Positions 9,787-22,043 of a stretch of DNA of 22,694 nucleotides are shown piece after piece (position 1 is the stretch's first letter; each line of letters begins with the position of its first letter). Below the pieces are notes generated by a model. The model saw only the letters and a program-made list of their open reading frames with translations. It was not told where the DNA came from and did not search any database. The DNA lies in the IMG/VR virus record IMGVR_UViG_3300034683_000004, positions 1-22,694 of that record, one strand, 5' to 3'. The translations under genes and the position numbers were made by a program. The stretch comes from a virus.

Positions 9787-11100
9787 ATGGCACTTGGCGG
9801 TGGTACTTTTTTAGTACAAAATAAGGTATTACCTGGCACTTATATCAATTTTGTAAGTGCGGCAAGAGCATCAGCAAGTCTTTCAGACAGAGGGGTTGTA
9901 GCAATGCCGCTTGAACTTGATTGGGGTGCTGATGATACAGTTTTTACAGTGACAGCAGAAGAATTTCAAAAGAATTCACTAAAGTTCTTCGGTTATCCTT
10001 ATGACCATGAAAAAATGAAGGGTTTAAGGGATTTGTTTAAAAATATTAACACTGGTCATTTTTATAAATTGATGAACAATGGGGTTGCTGCTTCTAATAC
10101 TTATTGCACTGCAAAATGCAAAGGTGTTAGAGGTAATGACCTGAAAACAGTTATTGCAGTTAATGCGGATGATGTTGCAAAGATGGATGTTTCAACTTAT
10201 CTTGGAACACAACTTGTTGATAAGCAGACAGTTCTTCCAAACACTGATAATTTAGTTGATACTGATTGGGTTGTTTGGAAATCAAATGTTGTACTTGCAC
10301 CAACTGCTGGTTTACCTTTAACCCTTGGAAGTAATGGTGCTGCTGTTACTGGAACACAATACCAAGATTTCCTTAATGCGATTGAATCTTTCAACTTCAA
10401 TATAATTGGTTGCTTGTCTACAACACCAGCAATAATTGATTTGATTGTTCAGTTTACAAAGCGTTTAAGGGATACAATTGGGGTGAAGTTTCAGGCGGTT
10501 GTTTATAGAACTGCTTCTGACTATGAAGGAATCATATCAGTTGAAAATAAAGTTACTGATGTTGGTGTTCCTGAATCTTCTTTGGTTTATTGGGTAACTG
10601 GTGCTGAAGCTGGTTGTGCGGTAAATAAAAGCTTGACTAATAAAAAATATGATGGTGAATTCACTGTTGATACTGCATATAAACAATCTGAACTTGAAGC
10701 AGCAATTCAGGGTGGAAAATTCATATTCCACAAGGTTGGTAATGATGTTCGTGTGCTTGAAGATATTAACACATTCATTACTGTCACAAATGAAAAATCA
10801 AGTGATTTCAGCAGTAATCAAACTATTAGGGTTCTTGACCAAATAGCAAATGATATTGCTTCTTTGTTTAATACAAAGTATTTAGGAAATGTTCCAAATG
10901 ATGCTGCTGGAAGAATAAGCTTGTGGAATGACATTGTTACGCACCATCAGCAGTTACAGACTATTAGAGCAATTGAAGATTTTAACCCTGATTTGGTGGT
11001 TGTTAAAGCAGGAAACACCAAAAAAGCTGTTGTGGTAAGTGATGTTGTAACACCAGTTAATGCAATGGCACAACTATATATGTCGGTTGTGGTTCAATAA
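9787..11100 (+). CDS. xkdK: Tail sheath protein (contractile)
   Basis: This 437-aa protein is the contractile sheath that drives the tube through the envelope. Evidence includes the N-terminal MALGGGTFLVQNKVLPGTYI, the ASLSDRGVVAMPLELDWG block (about 30-47) and the C-terminal TIRVLDQIANDIASLFNTKY near 350-370. All are characteristic of XkdK-type sheaths. The length is typical. Its presence makes this a myovirus rather than a siphovirus. It is followed by the tube gene with only 16 bases between. Confidence 0.95.
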   Translation: MALGGGTFLVQNKVLPGTYINFVSAARASASLSDRGVVAMPLELDWGADDTVFTVTAEEFQKNSLKFFGYPYDHEKMKGLRDLFKNINTGHFYKLMNNGVAASNTYCTAKCKGVRGNDLKTVIAVNADDVAKMDVSTYLGTQLVDKQTVLPNTDNLVDTDWVVWKSNVVLAPTAGLPLTLGSNGAAVTGTQYQDFLNAIESFNFNIIGCLSTTPAIIDLIVQFTKRLRDTIGVKFQAVVYRTASDYEGIISVENKVTDVGVPESSLVYWVTGAEAGCAVNKSLTNKKYDGEFTVDTAYKQSELEAAIQGGKFIFHKVGNDVRVLEDINTFITVTNEKSSDFSSNQTIRVLDQIANDIASLFNTKYLGNVPNDAAGRISLWNDIVTHHQQLQTIRAIEDFNPDLVVVKAGNTKKAVVVSDVVTPVNAMAQLYMSVVVQ

Positions 11101-11116: not shown

Positions 11117-11587
11117 ATGGCTAATGCAATGAATGCAAAAGATGCTGTTAGTGCTTCTCTTGCTGAATGCTTTGTTACAATTGAAGGAAACAGATATAAT
11201 TTCATGCAAGCAATTAATTTGGAAGCCAACTTTGAAAAGACAAAATCTGAAATCCCTATTCTTGGTAAAACAGGAAAGGGAAATAAGTCAACTGGTTGGA
11301 AAGGAACAGGTAATGCAACTTTCCATTATAACACCAGTATCTTCAGGGAACTTCTTTACAGGTATAAAAACACTGGTGAAGATATTTACTTTGATATTCA
11401 GGTTACAAATGAAGACCCAACATCCAGTGTTGGAAGGCAAACTGTTATTTTGAAGGGTTGTAACCTTGATGGTGGACTTCTTACCAAGTTTGATGCTGAT
11501 GCTGAATACTTGGATGAAAACATTGACTTCACCTTTGAAGATTTTGAAATCCCTGAAAAATTTAACTTACTTGCTGGTATGAGATAA
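11117..11587 (+). CDS. xkdM: Tail tube protein
   Basis: This 156-aa beta-rich protein forms the inner tube of the contractile tail. Stretches such as VTIEGNRYNFMQAINLEANF, ILGKTGKGNKSTGWKGTGNA and FEDFEIPEKF are hallmarks of the XkdM (DUF2001) family. It has a strong ribosome binding site (GAAAGGAGTG) and the expected place after the sheath. No anomaly was seen. Confidence 0.93.
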   Translation: MANAMNAKDAVSASLAECFVTIEGNRYNFMQAINLEANFEKTKSEIPILGKTGKGNKSTGWKGTGNATFHYNTSIFRELLYRYKNTGEDIYFDIQVTNEDPTSSVGRQTVILKGCNLDGGLLTKFDADAEYLDENIDFTFEDFEIPEKFNLLAGMR

Positions 11588-11604: not shown

Positions 11605-12033
11605 ATGGGTAATTTATCAGGCTTTTTAGCGCAAAATGCGCTTAAAGTTGAAAATGTAAAATATGTTGCTTCAAAAAGATTTCTTGATGAAAATGGTCAG
11701 CCGATTCCTTGGGAAATACGTTGCATCACTTCAACTGAAGATGAAGAATTAAGAAAAGCTTGCACAAAACGTGTTCCCGTTCCTGGTAAACGCAATCAGT
11801 TTACACCTGAAACTGATTATAACCTTTACCTTGGGAAGCTTGCTGCAAAATGTACTGCTTATCCAAACCTTGATGATGCTGAATTGCAAAACAGCTATGG
11901 TGTAATGGGTGCGGATGCACTGCTTAAAACCATGCTAACACCTGGGGAATATGCTGATTACTTGACAAAGGTTCAGGAAGTCAATGGTTTTGAAATAACC
12001 TTTGAAGATGCGGTTGATGAAGCAAAAAACTAA
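11605..12033 (+). CDS. xkdN: Tail assembly chaperone, zero-frame product (XkdN-like)
   Basis: This 142-aa protein matches the XkdN-type tail assembly chaperones that coat the tape measure during tail assembly. Recognisable blocks are KYVASKRFLDENGQPIPWEI, TEDEELRKACT and LGKLAAKCTAYPNLDDAELQ. It lies between tube and tape measure genes. The last three sense codons GCA AAA AAC precede TAA and contain the slippery heptamer A AAA AAC. A fraction of ribosomes should therefore shift to -1 and make a longer form with the 12030-12215 extension, about 203 aa in total. Confidence 0.92.
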   Translation: MGNLSGFLAQNALKVENVKYVASKRFLDENGQPIPWEIRCITSTEDEELRKACTKRVPVPGKRNQFTPETDYNLYLGKLAAKCTAYPNLDDAELQNSYGVMGADALLKTMLTPGEYADYLTKVQEVNGFEITFEDAVDEAKN

Positions 12034-12080
12034 TAAGTGAAGGTGATTTTGAAGCAAATATTGCTTATTATTGCCTTCAC
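12024..12080 (+). promoter_or_regulatory. Programmed -1 frameshift signal: slippery site plus stem-loop
   Basis: The heptamer A AAA AAC is at 12024-12030 in the correct zero-frame phase and directly precedes the stop TAA. Six bases later GTGAAGG (12037-12043) can pair perfectly with CCTTCAC (12074-12080). A second perfect stem, AAGCAA (12052-12057) with TTGCTT (12061-12066), is nested in the loop. Slippery site, spacer and stem match the standard arrangement of -1 frameshift stimulators. Confidence 0.85.
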
Positions 12081-12215
12081 AAATTTCATTTACTTCCATC
12101 TCAATTTTTACAGCTTGATAGGCAGGAAAGGGCTTTTATTGTGGCTGCAATTCAAATAAAGATTGAAGAAGATAAGAAGCGGGAAAAACAAATAAAGAAA
12201 CCTAAAAGAAGATAG
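12030..12215 (+). CDS. -1 frame extension of the tail assembly chaperone (GT-like)
   Basis: After a -1 slip at A AAA AAC, reading continues from CTA at 12030 for 61 codons to TAG at 12213-12215. The extension is helical and ends in a very basic tail (KKPKRR). Its core AYYCLHKFHLLPSQFLQLDR has the look of the second-frame domain in phage chaperones. No suitable ATG and ribosome binding site exist to make it independently, so it is best explained as the frameshift product, equivalent to lambda gpGT. The extended form would bind both tape measure and tube subunits, as known for lambda. Confidence 0.85.
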   Translation, partial: LISEGDFEANIAYYCLHKFHLLPSQFLQLDRQERAFIVAAIQIKIEEDKKREKQIKKPKRR

Positions 12216-12249
12216 CAGGATGGTTTATTGCAGTGACCATCCTGCTTTT
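12214..12249 (+). terminator. Terminator-like hairpin upstream of the tape measure gene
   Basis: AGCAGGATGGT (12214-12224) is a perfect 11-bp complement of ACCATCCTGCT (12236-12246), with an 11-base loop and TTTTCTTT after the stem. It starts within the stop codon of the chaperone extension. It would give partial termination before the tape measure gene, keeping this low-copy protein below the tube and sheath. Confidence 0.75.
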
Positions 12250-12271
12250 CTTTGTAAAGGCAGGTGAGAAC

Positions 12272-14380
12272 ATGGCAACAATAAGAACTGCAATCCAAAT
12301 TACTGATGGTATGTCACCAGCTTTTAGAAGTATGAACAAAGCAATGAATATTGTTTTGAACAGCTTTGAAGCACTTCAAACAGCTTCACATAATGCTGTT
12401 GATACCAGCAGTATTCAAAGAGCAAGGGAAGAATTGGCAAGGGCTGAAACATCCTTCAATGATGTTGAAAGAGAAATCAGGGAAGCCAATCTACAACAAC
12501 AGCAATTTAATGAAAGTATTAGAAATGGTCAATCTGCTGCTGATGGGCTTCGTGGGAAAATCACACAAATTGCTGCTGCGGTTGGGGCTTATCTTGGTAT
12601 AACAAAAACCCTTGATTTTGCTGATGAATTGACTTCCACAAAGGCAAGACTTGACCTAATGAATGATGGTTTACAAACTACTGCTGAACTTCAAAATATG
12701 ATTTATGCTTCTGCACAAAGGTCAAGAACTTCTTATCTTGATACTGCCCAAGCGGTTGCAAAGCTTGGAATCTTGGCAAAAGATGCTTTTTCAAGTAATA
12801 AAGAAATGGTTGCTTTTGCTGAACAGATGAATAAACAGTTTAAAATTGGCGGTGCAAGCATCCAGGAACAAACTGCTGCAATGTATCAGTTGACCCAAGC
12901 AATGGCTGCTGGAAGGCTTCAGGGTGATGAATTCAGGTCAATCATGGAAAATGCACCTATGCTTGCCCAAGCAATTGCTAAATATACAGGAAAATCAATT
13001 GGTGAACTTCGTGAAATGTCAAGTGAAGGCTTGATTACTGCGGATGTTATTAAGAACGCAATGTTTGCATCAGCAGATGAAACGAACAAAAAGTTTGCTG
13101 AATTACCAATTACTTTTGGTCAGATATGGACTTCAATTAAAAATAAAGCAATAAAAGCCTTTGACCCTGTACTTACTAAAATCAGTGAAATAACACAAAA
13201 TGATGACTTTGAAAAATTGACTAATAACATTGTTGGTGGAATTGTGATTGTGGCAAGTGCCGCTGCTTGGCTTTTTGAAATATTAACTTCAATTGCTGGT
13301 GTGATTTCAGACAATTGGTCATGGCTTGAACCTATTGTTTGGGGGCTTGTGGCTGCTTTCATTGCTTATAATGCAGTTTCATTTATAACTAATACAATCC
13401 TGGCTGTTCAGGGATTTATGGCAAAAGTAGCGGCAGCAGGGCAAATGATGCAAGCGGGTGCAACTTTCACAGCAACAGCAGCGCAATATGGACTTAATGC
13501 AGCTTTGTATGCTTGCCCATTAACTTGGATTATCATATTGATTATTGCTTTGATTGCTTTATTCTATGCGGCAGTTGCGGCAATCAATCATTTTGCTGGA
13601 ACATCAGTAAGCGCAACAGGAATTATTGCTGGTGCTTTCATGGTTGCCCTTGCTTTTATCGGTAACTTATTTGTTGGTTTATGGAATTTAATTATTGATG
13701 TGGTGGCTGCTATTTGGAATGTAATTGCATCAGTTGCAGAATTTCTTGCCAATGTTTTCAATGACCCAATTAGTTCTATTGTTCGGTCGTTTGCTGGAAT
13801 GGCTGATGCGGTTCTTGGAATTCTTCAAGGAATTGCTAAAGCTATTGATGCAATTTTTGGTTCTAACCTTGCTGGGGCTGTTAGTGGTTGGAGAAGTGGA
13901 CTTCAGGGGGCTGTTAATGATTTAGTTGGTGAAGCTGAAATAAAAGTTCCAAGAATGGATACCAGTTCATTGTATATGAACAGGTTTGAATATGGTGCTG
14001 CTTGGGATACTGGTTATACAGCTGGTGAAAGTTTTGAAAAGAACTTTGACATTAGAAACATTCTTGGTGGTGCTGCAAATTCATTGGATGCTTATGAATT
14101 AGGTAATAATCTTGATGGCATTTATAAAGGTGTTGGTGATACAGCAGCCAATACAGCTTCAATGAAAGATTCAATGGATGTAACTACTGAAGAATTGAAA
14201 TATATGCGTGATTTAGCAGAACAGGAAGTAATAAACCGCTTTACAACTGCTGAAATTAAAATTGACATGAACAATGAAAACCATATAAATTCAGAAATGG
14301 ATTTGGATGGTGTTGTGACATACCTTGAAGAAAAGTTATATGAAACTATGCAAATTGCTGCGGAAGGGGTGCATGAGTAA
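12272..14380 (+). CDS. Tape measure protein
   Basis: This 702-aa protein sets tail length. The N-terminal domain (about 90-290) is the phage tape-measure N-terminal type, e.g. MAAGRLQGDEFRSIMENAP at 211-229. Four hydrophobic segments follow (about 319-345, 353-380, 418-438, 450-492), as expected for a protein that inserts into the host membrane during injection. The start at 12272 is chosen for AAAGGCAGGTGAGAAC upstream; an in-frame GTG at 12233 lies in the hairpin. At about 1.5 Angstrom per residue the tail would be near 100 nm, an estimate only. The stop overlaps the next start (TAATG). Confidence 0.93.
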   Translation: MATIRTAIQITDGMSPAFRSMNKAMNIVLNSFEALQTASHNAVDTSSIQRAREELARAETSFNDVEREIREANLQQQQFNESIRNGQSAADGLRGKITQIAAAVGAYLGITKTLDFADELTSTKARLDLMNDGLQTTAELQNMIYASAQRSRTSYLDTAQAVAKLGILAKDAFSSNKEMVAFAEQMNKQFKIGGASIQEQTAAMYQLTQAMAAGRLQGDEFRSIMENAPMLAQAIAKYTGKSIGELREMSSEGLITADVIKNAMFASADETNKKFAELPITFGQIWTSIKNKAIKAFDPVLTKISEITQNDDFEKLTNNIVGGIVIVASAAAWLFEILTSIAGVISDNWSWLEPIVWGLVAAFIAYNAVSFITNTILAVQGFMAKVAAAGQMMQAGATFTATAAQYGLNAALYACPLTWIIILIIALIALFYAAVAAINHFAGTSVSATGIIAGAFMVALAFIGNLFVGLWNLIIDVVAAIWNVIASVAEFLANVFNDPISSIVRSFAGMADAVLGILQGIAKAIDAIFGSNLAGAVSGWRSGLQGAVNDLVGEAEIKVPRMDTSSLYMNRFEYGAAWDTGYTAGESFEKNFDIRNILGGAANSLDAYELGNNLDGIYKGVGDTAANTASMKDSMDVTTEELKYMRDLAEQEVINRFTTAEIKIDMNNENHINSEMDLDGVVTYLEEKLYETMQIAAEGVHE

Positions 14381-18586: not shown

Positions 18587-20368
18587 ATGGCAAGTTTTAA
18601 TCCAACAATTATTACTTCAAAAGGTCATGCGCTCATGGCTAAAATTATGGCTGGTACAGCGACCCCAAAATTTAGCAAAGTTTCTGTTTCAGATTATCAA
18701 TATGCAAGCGGAACAAATTATGAAGCCTTGACCAGTTTAAGCAGCATTAAACAGACTGCACTTGTTTCAGAAGTTTCAAAAATAAATAATGCTGCTGTCA
18801 AAGTAAGTGCTGCTTTAAGCAATGCGGATTTGGTTACAGGGTATTATTTAAGGAATATCGGTTTATATGCTATTGACCCACAAGAAGGTGAAATCCTTTA
18901 TTCTATCACAACAGCAATTCAACCTGATTGGATTCCCCCAAACAGTGGAATTAGTGCTTCAAGCATCTTAATTGACTTGATAACAGTTGTTTCAAATGCT
19001 TCCAATGTTTCTGTTGATGTTGACCCAAATGCAACTGCAACAGTATCACAAATTCAAGCCTTGGAATCTAAAATTGCTGATGTAAAGGGCTTTGTTGGCT
19101 ACAATGAAAATGATGTTTATGGTGTGGAAGTTGATTTTGAAAATAAGACTTTTACCAGGCTTGCTGGCGCAATTAATAAACTTCCTGGGGTTGATTTTAA
19201 TGGAATCAATGCCTTTGGTGGAAGAAAAAGATGCAGCTTGACTGATGATGGAAAAGTTCTTGCTTATTATGGTGAACCAGGATACAGTGAAACTGGTGCA
19301 ACAACAGTTGAAATTACAAAGAATTCAGTAACTTATCCAGTTGGAACAAAGGTTCAGTGCATGGTGGAACAGCCAAAATTCTATTATAAAGTTGTTCCAA
19401 TTAAACTTTCACCAATTACTGATGGTATTGGCTATCATTTAAGAAAAGCAAGATATTATGTTTCTGATTATCCAAAACCAGGATTCAAGATTCACCCTGC
19501 GTTTGTCAGAAACGGTGTTGAAAAATCTAAAATTTATCTTCCCGCTTATGAAGCTTCAATCTTTGATGTTTCAGCAAATGCTTATTTATTAGCTGATGAA
19601 CAGGTTGCAGACTTCACAGTTGGAACAGGTGATAAACTTTGTTCGATTGCCAATGCAAAACCAGCAAGCGGTTTGACACAAAACTTGACCAGGGCAAATA
19701 TGAGAAAGCTTGCAAATAACAGGGGTGCTGGATGGCAACAGAAAGATGTTTTATGTGTTTCAGCAACTCAAATGCTATTTATGATTGAATATGCGGCTTT
19801 GAACATGCAAACAGCCATTGGTGCAGGTGTTACCAATAAAGTTGATGATGCTGCATCAAACATGGCTGAACTTACTGGTGCAACAGCAAACCTTGGTAAT
19901 GCTTCAGGTGCGGTTACAAATACAAATGGTTGGACTGTTATTTCTTACAGAGGTGAAGAAAACTTCTTCGGTAACAATTGGAAGTGGGTTGACGGTTTGA
20001 ATATAGAATGTAACAACCTGCATTATGCTTGGTATGCTGACAACAGCTTTGCGGATGATATAAAAACAGCACCTTACAAAAATGCAGGTTTTACTTTGGC
20101 AAAGGCAAATGGTTATGTTTCAGCCTTTGGTTGGTCAGAAACTTGTGATTTCTTGTTCTTACCTACTGAAGTGCTTGGAACTTCTGCTTTACCTGTTGGG
20201 GATTACTTCTATCAAAATGCAGCTTATGGAGGTTTCTTGGTCGCTCGATTGGGCGGTGATTGGAATAGTGGCTCGGGCGCTGGTGGTTTCTATTGGAATG
20301 TGGGTAATGCTTCTTCTCTTCGGACTCGGGATATCGGCGGCGGGGCGGTGTATGTTCCAGCGGCTTGA
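18587..20368 (+). CDS. Tail fibre/receptor-binding protein, DGR target
   Basis: This 593-aa protein has an N-terminal collar-fibre domain (MASFNPTIITSKGHALMAKI; GYYLRNIGLYAIDPQEGEIL near 86-105), which attaches to the baseplate. A C-terminal domain (about 300-593) has the look of the C-type-lectin/formylglycine-enzyme-like fold that displays DGR-variable residues: GWQQKDVLCVSATQMLFMIEY, then DWNSGSG and FYWNV. Residues 549-589 are the variable region, leaving only VPAA after it. The ribosome binding site is AAAGAAAGGCGG. The fibre is expected to bind the host surface, and the DGR downstream would diversify that contact. The lectin-like fold is inferred from motifs and context. Confidence 0.93.
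   Translation: MASFNPTIITSKGHALMAKIMAGTATPKFSKVSVSDYQYASGTNYEALTSLSSIKQTALVSEVSKINNAAVKVSAALSNADLVTGYYLRNIGLYAIDPQEGEILYSITTAIQPDWIPPNSGISASSILIDLITVVSNASNVSVDVDPNATATVSQIQALESKIADVKGFVGYNENDVYGVEVDFENKTFTRLAGAINKLPGVDFNGINAFGGRKRCSLTDDGKVLAYYGEPGYSETGATTVEITKNSVTYPVGTKVQCMVEQPKFYYKVVPIKLSPITDGIGYHLRKARYYVSDYPKPGFKIHPAFVRNGVEKSKIYLPAYEASIFDVSANAYLLADEQVADFTVGTGDKLCSIANAKPASGLTQNLTRANMRKLANNRGAGWQQKDVLCVSATQMLFMIEYAALNMQTAIGAGVTNKVDDAASNMAELTGATANLGNASGAVTNTNGWTVISYRGEENFFGNNWKWVDGLNIECNNLHYAWYADNSFADDIKTAPYKNAGFTLAKANGYVSAFGWSETCDFLFLPTEVLGTSALPVGDYFYQNAAYGGFLVARLGGDWNSGSGAGGFYWNVGNASSLRTRDIGGGAVYVPAA
20231..20354 (+). repeat. DGR variable region (VR) in the fibre gene
   Basis: This stretch aligns without gaps to the template at 20439-20562. 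In the 123-bp codon-aligned part there are 24 differences, every one at a TR adenine: 20 A to G, 2 A to C, 2 A to T. No C, G or T of the template is changed. They alter 17 of 41 codons at the protein level (residues 549-589) and 4 codons silently. Outside these limits similarity falls away at once on both sides. Confidence 0.95.
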
Positions 20369-20438
20369 TGAAGTAATTTAAAACTCAATATACGGGCAAA
20401 CAGATTATGCAATATGGTTAAACAAAAGAAGTTTCACC

Positions 20439-20562
20439 AGTTTCTTAGTCACTCAATTAGGCAGTAATTGGAATAATGGCTCGAACACTGGTAGTTTCTA
20501 TTGGAATGTGAATAATGCTTCTTCTAATCGGAATCGGAATATCAGCAGCAGGGCAGTAAATG
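20439..20562 (+). repeat. DGR template repeat (TR)
   Basis: This non-coding copy of the fibre end lies 208 bp after the VR and 154 bp before the reverse transcriptase gene. It contains 38 adenines in 123 bp, of which 24 are substituted in the VR. It holds 11 AAT or AAC codons in the VR frame, the codon class typical of DGR templates because adenine mutagenesis yields many residues. None of its 41 codons can become a stop by changing adenines. It would be transcribed and reverse-transcribed with adenine errors. Confidence 0.95.
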
Positions 20563-20591
20563 CACTTAAACAAAAAAACCCTGTTAAAATC

Positions 20592-20669
20592 ATGTTTGCC
20601 CTGCCTCTTGGCAAAACATAAAAATTATCTAAACCTGTATTGGTAGGTTTGAAAATTAACTTTCAAAAC
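20592..20669 (+). other. Hairpin-rich leader between TR and reverse transcriptase
   Basis: Several inverted repeats follow the TR. ATGTTTGCC (20592-20600) pairs with GGCAAAACAT (20610-20619) with one bulged A. AAACCT (20631-20636) pairs with AGGTTT (20645-20650). GTTTGAAA (20647-20654) pairs with TTTCAAAAC (20661-20669) with one bulge. None has a T run after it, so they are not terminators. Structured RNA beyond the TR is needed for cDNA priming in the Bordetella phage DGR, and this segment is a candidate for that role. Together with the TR it accounts for most of the gene-free interval 20369-20715. Confidence 0.5.
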
Positions 20670-20715
20670 CGTTTGAAGATTCGGGGTTAGTGCATACAAC
20701 AATGAGGGGTAATCT

Positions 20716-21774
20716 ATGAAAAGATATGGTAATTTATACAGCAAAATTTATGATATGAATAATTTAAAATTTGCCCACAGAAACGCAAGAAAAGGGAAGG
20801 GATGGTATAAAGAAGTAAAAATGGTTGATGCAGATGAAGAATATTATTTGAAGTTGCTTCAAGAAATGCTCATAAATAAAACATATAAAACTTCTGAATA
20901 CGAAACCTTTCTTAAAAAGGAGGGCTTGAAAGAACGTGAAATTTATAAGTTACCATACTTCCCTGATAGGATTTGTCAATGGGCAATTATGCAAGTTATT
21001 GAACCTATTCTGATAAATAACTTTACCAAAGACACCTATTCAGCCATTCCAGGCAGAGGAATTCACCTTGTAAAGAAGCGGCTGATTAAAGCAATTCAAA
21101 ATGATGTTCCTGGTACACAATATACTTTGAAGCTTGATGTAAAAAAATATTATCCAAGTATAAACCATGATATTTTAAAAGCCAAGTATAGGCGAATTTT
21201 TAAAGATGATAACCTTCTTTGGTTACTTGATGAAATTATTGATTCCACACCTAGTGATACAGGAATTCCTATTGGGAACTATCTTTCACAGTACAGCGGT
21301 AATTTTTATCTTTCATCTTTTGACCACTGGATTAAAGAAGTCAAAAAGGTGAAGTATTATTTTAGGTATATGGATGACATTGTTATCTTTGGAAGAACCA
21401 AAGAAGAACTGCATCAACTAAAACATGATATTGAAGAATACTTAATGAATGAACTGAAGTTGACTATTAAGGAAAATTGGCAGGTGTTCCCCACTTTTGT
21501 AAGGGGTGTTGATTATGTAGGATACAGAACCTTTTTAAACTATTCTCTATTAAGAAAATCAACATGTAAAGCTTTCAAGCGCAAAATGCTTAATATTAGG
21601 AAGAAGTGCTTAAATGGTAAAGGTATGACATTTTCTGAATGGTGTTCAATCAATTCTTATAAGGGATGGTTGATGTGGTGTGATAGTTATAGGCTTACTG
21701 AAAAATATATTGCACCAATTCAGTCTTTTGCAGATGATTACTATAAACATAAAATTAAAAGAAAGGTGGATTAA
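20716..21774 (+). CDS. DGR reverse transcriptase
   Basis: This 352-aa reverse transcriptase would copy the TR RNA into adenine-mutated cDNA. Motifs seen in order: LPYFPDRICQWAI (79-91); LKLDVKKYYPSI with catalytic Asp141; GIPIGNYLSQ (183-192), the DGR form of motif 4, where group II intron enzymes have QGxxxSP; YMDD (218-221) with the catalytic Asp pair 220-221; and GVDYVGYR (264-271). Size is normal for DGR enzymes, with no maturase or endonuclease domain. The ribosome binding site is GAGGGG at 20704-20709. It is followed directly by small tail genes on the same strand. Confidence 0.95.
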   Translation: MKRYGNLYSKIYDMNNLKFAHRNARKGKGWYKEVKMVDADEEYYLKLLQEMLINKTYKTSEYETFLKKEGLKEREIYKLPYFPDRICQWAIMQVIEPILINNFTKDTYSAIPGRGIHLVKKRLIKAIQNDVPGTQYTLKLDVKKYYPSINHDILKAKYRRIFKDDNLLWLLDEIIDSTPSDTGIPIGNYLSQYSGNFYLSSFDHWIKEVKKVKYYFRYMDDIVIFGRTKEELHQLKHDIEEYLMNELKLTIKENWQVFPTFVRGVDYVGYRTFLNYSLLRKSTCKAFKRKMLNIRKKCLNGKGMTFSEWCSINSYKGWLMWCDSYRLTEKYIAPIQSFADDYYKHKIKRKVD

Positions 21775-21776
21775 AA

Positions 21777-22043
21777 ATGGTCAATTATGGAACTGTAAAA
21801 AGTACAGTAAAACCAAGTGAACTTGTAATTGATGAATTCAATGTTTGGGTTCATACCAATATCATTGAAGTAAGTGAAAATATTGGTGGAGAAAATGAAT
21901 TTATTGGCTTCCAATTTGATTGTGTTCAGTATGGTAAAGATGAATATATTAAGTTGATGTCAAAAAAGAATCAAAGCTTGGAACAGCAAATAACAGATGC
22001 ACAACTTGCCCTGGTTGAATTATATGAGAGGATGGTGGTATAA
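21777..22043 (+). CDS. Hypothetical tail-associated protein
   Basis: This 88-aa acidic protein opens MVNYGTVKSTVKPSELVIDE, has a WVHTNI/GFQFDCVQY beta-like core and ends with a short helical or coiled segment (LEQQITDAQLALVELYERM). Small proteins of this kind follow fibre genes in clostridial phages. The function is not known. It begins two bases after the reverse transcriptase stop with AAAGAAAGGTGG, so it shares its transcript. It is shorter and more acidic than typical DGR Avd proteins, so it is not called as one. Confidence 0.8.
   Translation: MVNYGTVKSTVKPSELVIDEFNVWVHTNIIEVSENIGGENEFIGFQFDCVQYGKDEYIKLMSKKNQSLEQQITDAQLALVELYERMVV

What the first reader, a model, noticed from the sequence alone, without database searches (positions are those of the whole stretch)
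12024..12215. Programmed -1 frameshift making a GT-like tail chaperone
A AAA AAC in phase, placed right before the stop, with a stem starting 6 nt downstream (perfect 7-bp outer, 6-bp inner) and a 61-codon -1 extension. Standard gene callers would leave 12034-12271 as an unexplained gap.
Basis: partly seen in the sequence, partly recalled or inferred. Interest (0 to 1): 0.55.

Follow-up and report, generated by a model that had tools for sequence, protein, structure and literature searches.

The report
Frameshift-made phage tail-assembly chaperone
This phage carries the signals of a well-known trick, a ribosome slip near the end of a tail-chaperone gene that makes a second, longer chaperone; the site is real and strongly conserved, but it is a new example of a familiar mechanism, not a new one.

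Summary
In a contractile-tail gene block, the XkdN/YqbN-type chaperone gene (11605-12033, PF08890) ends in an in-phase A AAA AAC heptamer directly before its stop. A stem-loop begins 6 nt downstream and a 61-codon -1-frame extension runs to 12215. Relatives confirm it: in-phase A AAA AAN in 189 of 191 loci (182 AAAAAAC); the exceptions are a phage with both parts in one frame and a decayed copy. The extension is under purifying selection only in the -1 frame (pN/pS 0.24; 1.47 and 2.13 in the others). Heptamer wobble bases are frozen (Lys AAA 157/157). The stem beats a synonymous-codon null, with compensatory changes in relatives. This is lambda G/GT-type programmed -1 frameshifting: a new member of a known kind. 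Side results: the stem's 5' arm stays while its 3' partner differs between lineages; four PHROG 'unknown function' families match the window's extension; some relatives bury the tape-measure ribosome-binding site in a hairpin behind the extension's stop. Stems are not convincing in some relatives. No frameshifting was measured.

The parts
9787..11100 (+). tail sheath gene (context)
   Evidence: PF04984/PF17481/PF17482 and PHROG 279
11117..11587 (+). tail tube gene, XkdM-like (context; expected partner of the extension by analogy with lambda)
   Evidence: PF09393 E 9.8e-55; PHROG 365
11605..12033 (+). tail assembly chaperone, XkdN/YqbN type, 142 aa: the 'G' product
   Evidence: PF08890 E 4.5e-51; PHROG 389; AlphaFold model pLDDT 88.7 matches 3klu YqbN
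12024..12030 (+). slippery heptamer A AAA AAC, in phase with the chaperone frame
   Evidence: read directly; in phase in 189 of 191 loci as A AAA AAN
12031..12033 (+). zero-frame stop codon TAA
12037..12080 (+). probable stimulatory stem-loop: 11-bp outer helix 12037-12047 / 12070-12080, 6-bp inner helix 12052-12057 / 12061-12066
   Evidence: fold z -4.4; synonymous null z -2.9, 0/200; covariation in relatives chosen for pairing
12030..12215 (+). -1 frame extension, 61 codons plus TAG: the 'T-like' C-terminal part of the 203-aa fusion
   Evidence: open frame; conserved in relatives; pN/pS 0.24 in this frame only; three-helix model pLDDT 83.9
12214..12246 (+). 12-bp hairpin overlapping the extension's stop codon, followed by a T-rich stretch, before the tape measure gene; role unknown
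   Evidence: fold z -4.5, -3.2 with other limits; similar hairpins with changed sequence in near relatives
12272..14380 (+). tape measure gene (context; expected partner of the chaperone part)
   Evidence: PF20155 E 1.1e-49; PHROG 1068

Best explanation
A programmed -1 ribosomal frameshift of the lambda G/GT kind. Most ribosomes read the chaperone gene to the TAA at 12031 and make the 142-aa XkdN-type chaperone. A minority, held up by the stem-loop that starts 6 nt after A AAA AAC, slip back one base with tRNAs in both sites and continue in the -1 frame to TAG 12213, giving a 203-aa fusion. [quoted passage not shown] both leave before the tail is mature. Shown here: gene identity, heptamer, frame, extension, conservation, selection and a predicted stem. 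Inferred: that slippage happens, its rate, and the two binding roles.
For: Family and synteny. In-phase A AAA AAN in 189 of 191 loci, 160 distinct extension sequences. Frozen wobble bases in the 157 distinct sequences counted: Lys AAA 157/157 (background in the same genes 1009 AAA: 729 AAG), preceding codon ends in A 157/157 over six codons, Asn AAC 151: AAT 2 (background AAC 411: AAT 725). Extension pN/pS 0.24 in the -1 frame against 1.47 and 2.13 in the others. Extension median 63 codons counted from the heptamer start in 158 complete cases. In the window the only ATG/GTG/TTG in the extension is codon index 39 of 63, and 113 of 160 lack one up to codon index 15, so separate initiation could not make the conserved beginning. 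Stem: 91 of 157 relatives at z <= -2 against synonymous recoding. Covariation in 50 chosen sequences: 51 double-changed cells against 18.3 in shuffles, 0/500.
Against: No expression data. A AAA AAC is much less shift-prone than A AAA AAG in E. coli (PMC5009743, passages), so the rate may be low. The stem is not universal: in one C. difficile phage group (L052-L082, L110-L112) z lies between about +1 and -2, and in the Lactobacillus phages near 0. Much of the pairing is already imposed by the protein: over 112 ungapped relatives the mean is 8.03 of 11 outer pairs against 6.86 in synonymous recodings. The 50 sequences of the covariation test were chosen for 9 or more of 11 outer pairs, which inflates pairing, and sliding the partner by -3 also gives 7 pairs with double changes, though fewer cells (18). 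EJ-1 (L089) encodes both parts in one frame, so some phages may do without the slip, unless that is a sequencing error. No match of the extension to a Pfam chaperone family.
Confidence: 0.95

Rival explanations
1. The extension is a separate small gene, translated from its own start by coupling to the chaperone's stop.
For: Five of 17 annotated phage records call a short separate ORF inside the extension.
Against: Only one ATG/GTG/TTG (codon index 39 of 63) in the window's extension; 113 of 160 relatives have none up to index 15, yet residues near the beginning (KKLI, D8, AYYCLHK) are among the most conserved. It does not explain the frozen heptamer.
Confidence: 0.02
2. RNA polymerase slippage on the A run, not ribosome slippage, makes the fused product.
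For: A subgroup of relatives has A9 before the stop (L177, L182, L187, L199, L202-L207); polymerase slippage is used for dnaX in Thermus thermophilus (PMC5009743, passage; the run length there is recalled, not read).
Against: The window and nearly all relatives have A6 in phase followed by C (182 of 191 AAAAAAC); a downstream stem with covariation is not needed for polymerase slippage.
Confidence: 0.03
3. A chance heptamer or a sequencing error at the gene end.
For: A-rich genome; poly-A runs are error-prone.
Against: 189 of 191 loci keep it in phase; -1 frame selection; 157 of 158 complete extensions are open for 45 codons or more.
Confidence: 0.005

Closest known systems
Phage lambda G / GT tail assembly chaperones (about 30:1)
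   Same: [quoted passage not shown] gene order as here (recalled).
   Different: The gene here belongs to PF08890; the heptamer differs (lambda's GGGAAAG is recalled); contractile-tail module; rate unknown here.
Bacillus phage SPP1 17.5 / 17.5* (UUUUUUC, putative -1)
   Same: Gram-positive phage, homopolymer heptamer ending in C, G/GT analogues (PMC6316719, passages).
   Different: Siphovirus; other heptamer; I did not compare the proteins.
TP901-1 gpG / gpT (GGGAAAG)
   Same: -1 slip at the 3' end of gpG; the slippery site was mutated experimentally (PMC4493119, passages).
   Different: Siphovirus; other heptamer; proteins not compared.
Haloarchaeal virus HCTV-2 and Paenibacillus larvae phage Dragolir
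   Same: A_AAA_AAC named as g-t shift site in HCTV-2 (PMC5009743, passage), and possibly AAAAAAC in Dragolir (PMC6003738, passage).
   Different: Homology of their chaperones to XkdN not tested.
XkdN/YqbN family (PF08890; PDB 3klu)
   Same: The zero-frame product belongs here: E 4.5e-51, Z 15.9, 33% identity over 117 residues.
   Different: The Pfam match and the 3klu alignment cover only the zero-frame product.

Membership tests
XkdN/YqbN tail assembly chaperone family (PF08890, PHROG 389) | score above the curated Pfam cut-off over the full model | tested here: met
   172.8 bits against 27, residues 4-141 on model 1-135
XkdN/YqbN tail assembly chaperone family (PF08890, PHROG 389) | fold of the solved member YqbN | tested here: met
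   3klu: Foldseek E 8e-10, TM 0.91 by target; VIA-align Z 15.9, rmsd 1.4 over 117 residues
lambda G/GT-type programmed frameshift | chaperone gene directly between tail tube and tape measure genes | tested here: met
lambda G/GT-type programmed frameshift | X XXY YYZ heptamer in phase near the 3' end, extension in the -1 frame | tested here: met
   189 of 191 loci
lambda G/GT-type programmed frameshift | extension conserved as protein and under purifying selection | tested here: met
lambda G/GT-type programmed frameshift | downstream RNA structure (common stimulator, not universal) | tested here: met
   predicted in the window with covariation in relatives; its effect on slippage is untested
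lambda G/GT-type programmed frameshift | measured low-level slippage giving two products in a fixed ratio | not testable with these tools
   needs reporter or mass spectrometry
lambda G/GT-type programmed frameshift | common part binds the tape measure, extension binds the tube protein; neither in the virion | not testable with these tools
   Only indirect: an XkdN-like chaperone (gp57) was missing from phiCD508 virions by mass spectrometry (PMC11948020, passage)
lambda G/GT-type programmed frameshift | detectable sequence homology to lambda gpG or gpT | tested here: inconclusive
   only PF08890 for the chaperone, no Pfam chaperone family for the extension; lambda proteins were not compared directly

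The most novel reading that the evidence does not exclude
One slip may set two doses at once. Only frameshifted ribosomes reach the extension's stop, which in the window overlaps a 12-bp hairpin ending 25 nt before the tape measure start. In 26 of 77 testable relatives the tape measure's Shine-Dalgarno sequence is predicted mostly buried (16 with p <= 0.05 where about 4 are expected; the loci are related, and 80 more of 157 could not be tested). Arriving ribosomes would open it, so tape measure synthesis would be coupled to GT synthesis. In the window itself the Shine-Dalgarno sequence is not buried more than chance (p 0.62), so the hairpin there would have to act otherwise, for instance as a transcription attenuator.
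Probability: 0.1. Interest if true: 0.55.

Novelty: new member of a known kind. Interest (0 to 1): 0.27.

Why it matters
It adds a cleanly conserved branch, the XkdN/YqbN contractile-tail chaperones (by the named records mostly phages and prophages of Firmicutes), to the known tail-chaperone frameshifts. None of the 17 annotated phage records that I opened shows the joined product, and several PHROG families without a function are probably pieces of it. The conserved choice of A AAA AAC, reported as weaker than A AAA AAG in E. coli, and a stem whose 5' arm stays while its 3' partner changes, make the tuning of slippage testable by comparison.

Tried and rejected
Separate translation of the extension, polymerase slippage and chance were considered and are listed as rivals. 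Stop-codon readthrough was rejected because it would stay in the zero frame. A Shine-Dalgarno-like stimulator upstream of the heptamer was looked at: 129 of 160 genes have 3 or 4 of 6 matches to AGGAGG and 17 have 5; no control was run, so no conclusion. My automatic stem classes (81 local, 63 long-range, 13 weak of 157) are crude: several C. difficile sequences fall into 'long-range' with z near 0. The terminator scan did not list the hairpin at 12214-12246, whose loop exceeds its limit. Pfam on 42 extensions gave only stray hits (best 0.008); NCBIfam gave none for either part of the window's product. The fold search listed no other known tail chaperone beside 3klu; weak rows were not used. 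One search drew the same genomes as and added almost nothing. Loci left out of the 191: seven re-fetched copies (L121-L127), the window's own copy L001, two 31-aa contig-end hits and one 668-aa low-score hit that were not fetched, and L199-L207, examined apart. The stem-pair count leaves out 48 of 160 sequences (46 with an indel or no proline at the anchor position, 2 short).

Full report
Setting. The window is a 22.7-kb virus record without a completeness estimate. It carries terminase, SPP1-type portal, scaffold and major head protein genes on the left, then tail sheath, tube, XkdN-type chaperone, tape measure, a LysM protein, a YqbQ-like protein, sheath initiator and baseplate genes. This resembles the PBSX order of contractile tails (recalled; the gene identities are from the calls).

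The observation. The chaperone gene ends GAA GCA AAA AAC TAA. A AAA AAC (12024-12030) is in phase; the -1 frame stays open for 61 codons to TAG at 12213-12215. Folding gives an 11-bp outer and a 6-bp inner helix starting 6 nt after the heptamer, -19.9 kcal/mol, z -4.4 against dinucleotide shuffles and z -2.9 (0 of 200) against recodings that keep the extension's protein. A product of 203 aa would result.

Conservation. After dropping duplicates, 191 loci including the window were examined. In-phase heptamers: AAAAAAC 182, AAAAAAT 3, AAAAAAA 3, AAAAAAG 1, none 2. The two without are EJ-1 (L089), where both parts lie in one frame of 198 aa because of a one-base difference from its near-identical relative upstream of the heptamer, natural or a sequencing error, and L195, a decayed copy with an internal stop. 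One AAAAAAT locus (L189) has A8 and its extension is not in the -1 frame. Among 160 distinct extension sequences the zero-frame stop follows the heptamer directly (141) or one codon later (15) in all but four. The samples are not independent: many C. difficile copies are near-identical.

Selection. Over 42 codons of the extension, among the window and 21 relatives, pooled pN/pS is 0.24 in the -1 frame, 1.47 in the zero frame and 2.13 in the third. In the heptamer, Lys is AAA in 157 of 157 (background 1009 AAA to 729 AAG in the same genes), the codon before it ends in A in 157 of 157 although it is GCA, GTA, ATA, CTA, AAA or TTA, and Asn is AAC 151 times to AAT 2 (background 411 to 725). The C is partly tied to the leucine codon of the -1 frame, so AAC over AAT is not purely a decoding choice. 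A AAA AAC is reported as much less shift-prone than A AAA AAG in E. coli (PMC5009743, passages), so its near-fixation fits a low slip rate supported by a stem; this is inference.

The stem in relatives. Of 157 distinct sequences, 91 fold at z <= -2 and 123 at z <= -1 against synonymous recoding. In the 112 that align without gaps, 54 form at least 9 of the 11 outer pairs of the window, 16 form all 7 pairs of a longer-range stem that uses nearly the same 5' arm but pairs about 21-25 nt further downstream, and 5 of these can form both. Pair counts alone exceed the synonymous null only modestly (8.03 against 6.86 of 11; 4.71 against 4.13 of 7), because the protein already imposes much of the pairing. 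Forty-seven form neither; by eye some of these have a register-shifted local hairpin, while one C. difficile group and the Lactobacillus phages show nothing convincing. In 50 distinct sequences with the window's stem, double-sided changes number 51 against 18.3 in shuffles (0 of 500; at most 23 when the partner is slid), and the covariation score is 0.199 against 0.116 in shuffles and at most 0.081 when the partner is slid. The wobble bases of the downstream His, Leu and Cys codons follow second-position changes upstream. The set was chosen for pairing, so the figures lean upward.

Proteins. The chaperone model (pLDDT 88.7) matches YqbN 3klu. The extension is predicted as three helices with a basic tail (pLDDT 83.9). 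Seven PHROG families match extensions of 42 relatives, all without a name or description; the four that match the window's own extension are labelled unknown function. They are probably fragments of this product.

Literature. A review describes -1, -2 or +1 slips in tail chaperone genes of tailed phages, with lambda at about 30:1 and the T part binding the tube protein (PMC5009743, passages). GeneTack's authors measured 6% and 7% slippage in two genes of a tail-chaperone cluster (PMC3711429, passages). Searches for XkdN with frameshift, PBSX with translational frameshift, tail assembly chaperone with frameshift and other terms, XkdN-like with chaperone, AAAAAAC with frameshift, phage and tail, and diffocin with frameshift showed no paper on a frameshift in an XkdN-type gene in the listings or in the passages I read. 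Only open papers are held, and the key 2004 survey by Xu and colleagues is not, so I do not claim that it is unpublished.

Verdict. The finding is real and correctly interpreted. It is a new member of a known kind; the interest is in the breadth, the fixed site and the two side observations (changing stem partner; hairpins before the tape measure gene).

Noticed in passing
window 18587-22043: What looks like a diversity-generating retroelement: tail fibre gene with a variable repeat (20232-20354), template repeat (20440-20562, 81% identical; all 23 differences lie at template adenines), Rfam RT-17 RNA (20597-20699), reverse transcriptase (20716-21774) and an 88-aa gene of PHROG 18126.
   Followed up: partly
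window 12214-12246: A 12-bp hairpin overlapping the extension's stop and followed by a T-rich stretch, before the tape measure gene; near relatives keep a hairpin with changed sequence. It could be an attenuator. Over 157 loci 38 have z < -2 in this place.
   Followed up: partly
L103, L114, L019, L049, L032, L034 and others, between extension stop and tape measure start: The tape measure gene's Shine-Dalgarno sequence is paired in a hairpin right behind the extension's stop; 26 of 77 testable loci have predicted accessibility under 0.2, 16 with p <= 0.05; 80 of 157 loci were not testable.
   Followed up: partly
L177, L182, L187, L199, L202-L207 (A9); L200 (A8G); L189, L201 (A8): A subgroup has A9 before TAG instead of A AAA AAC; one copy reads A8G, and two have A8 with the extension in the other frame. 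Ribosome or polymerase slippage is open there.
   Followed up: partly
L089 (phage EJ-1): Chaperone and extension are encoded in a single frame; the heptamer letters remain but out of phase. Natural fusion or sequencing error.
   Followed up: partly
PHROG 10943, 20560, 5646, 33439, 28231: These families match the -1 extension of 40, 39, 35, 35 and 20 of 42 relatives and are probably frameshift extensions called as separate genes; the first four are labelled unknown function, the label of 28231 was not shown.
   Followed up: partly
L082, L088, L098 (PP767789, OL774875, MZ983385): XkdN-type chaperones annotated as 'portal protein', probably a propagated naming error.
   Followed up: no
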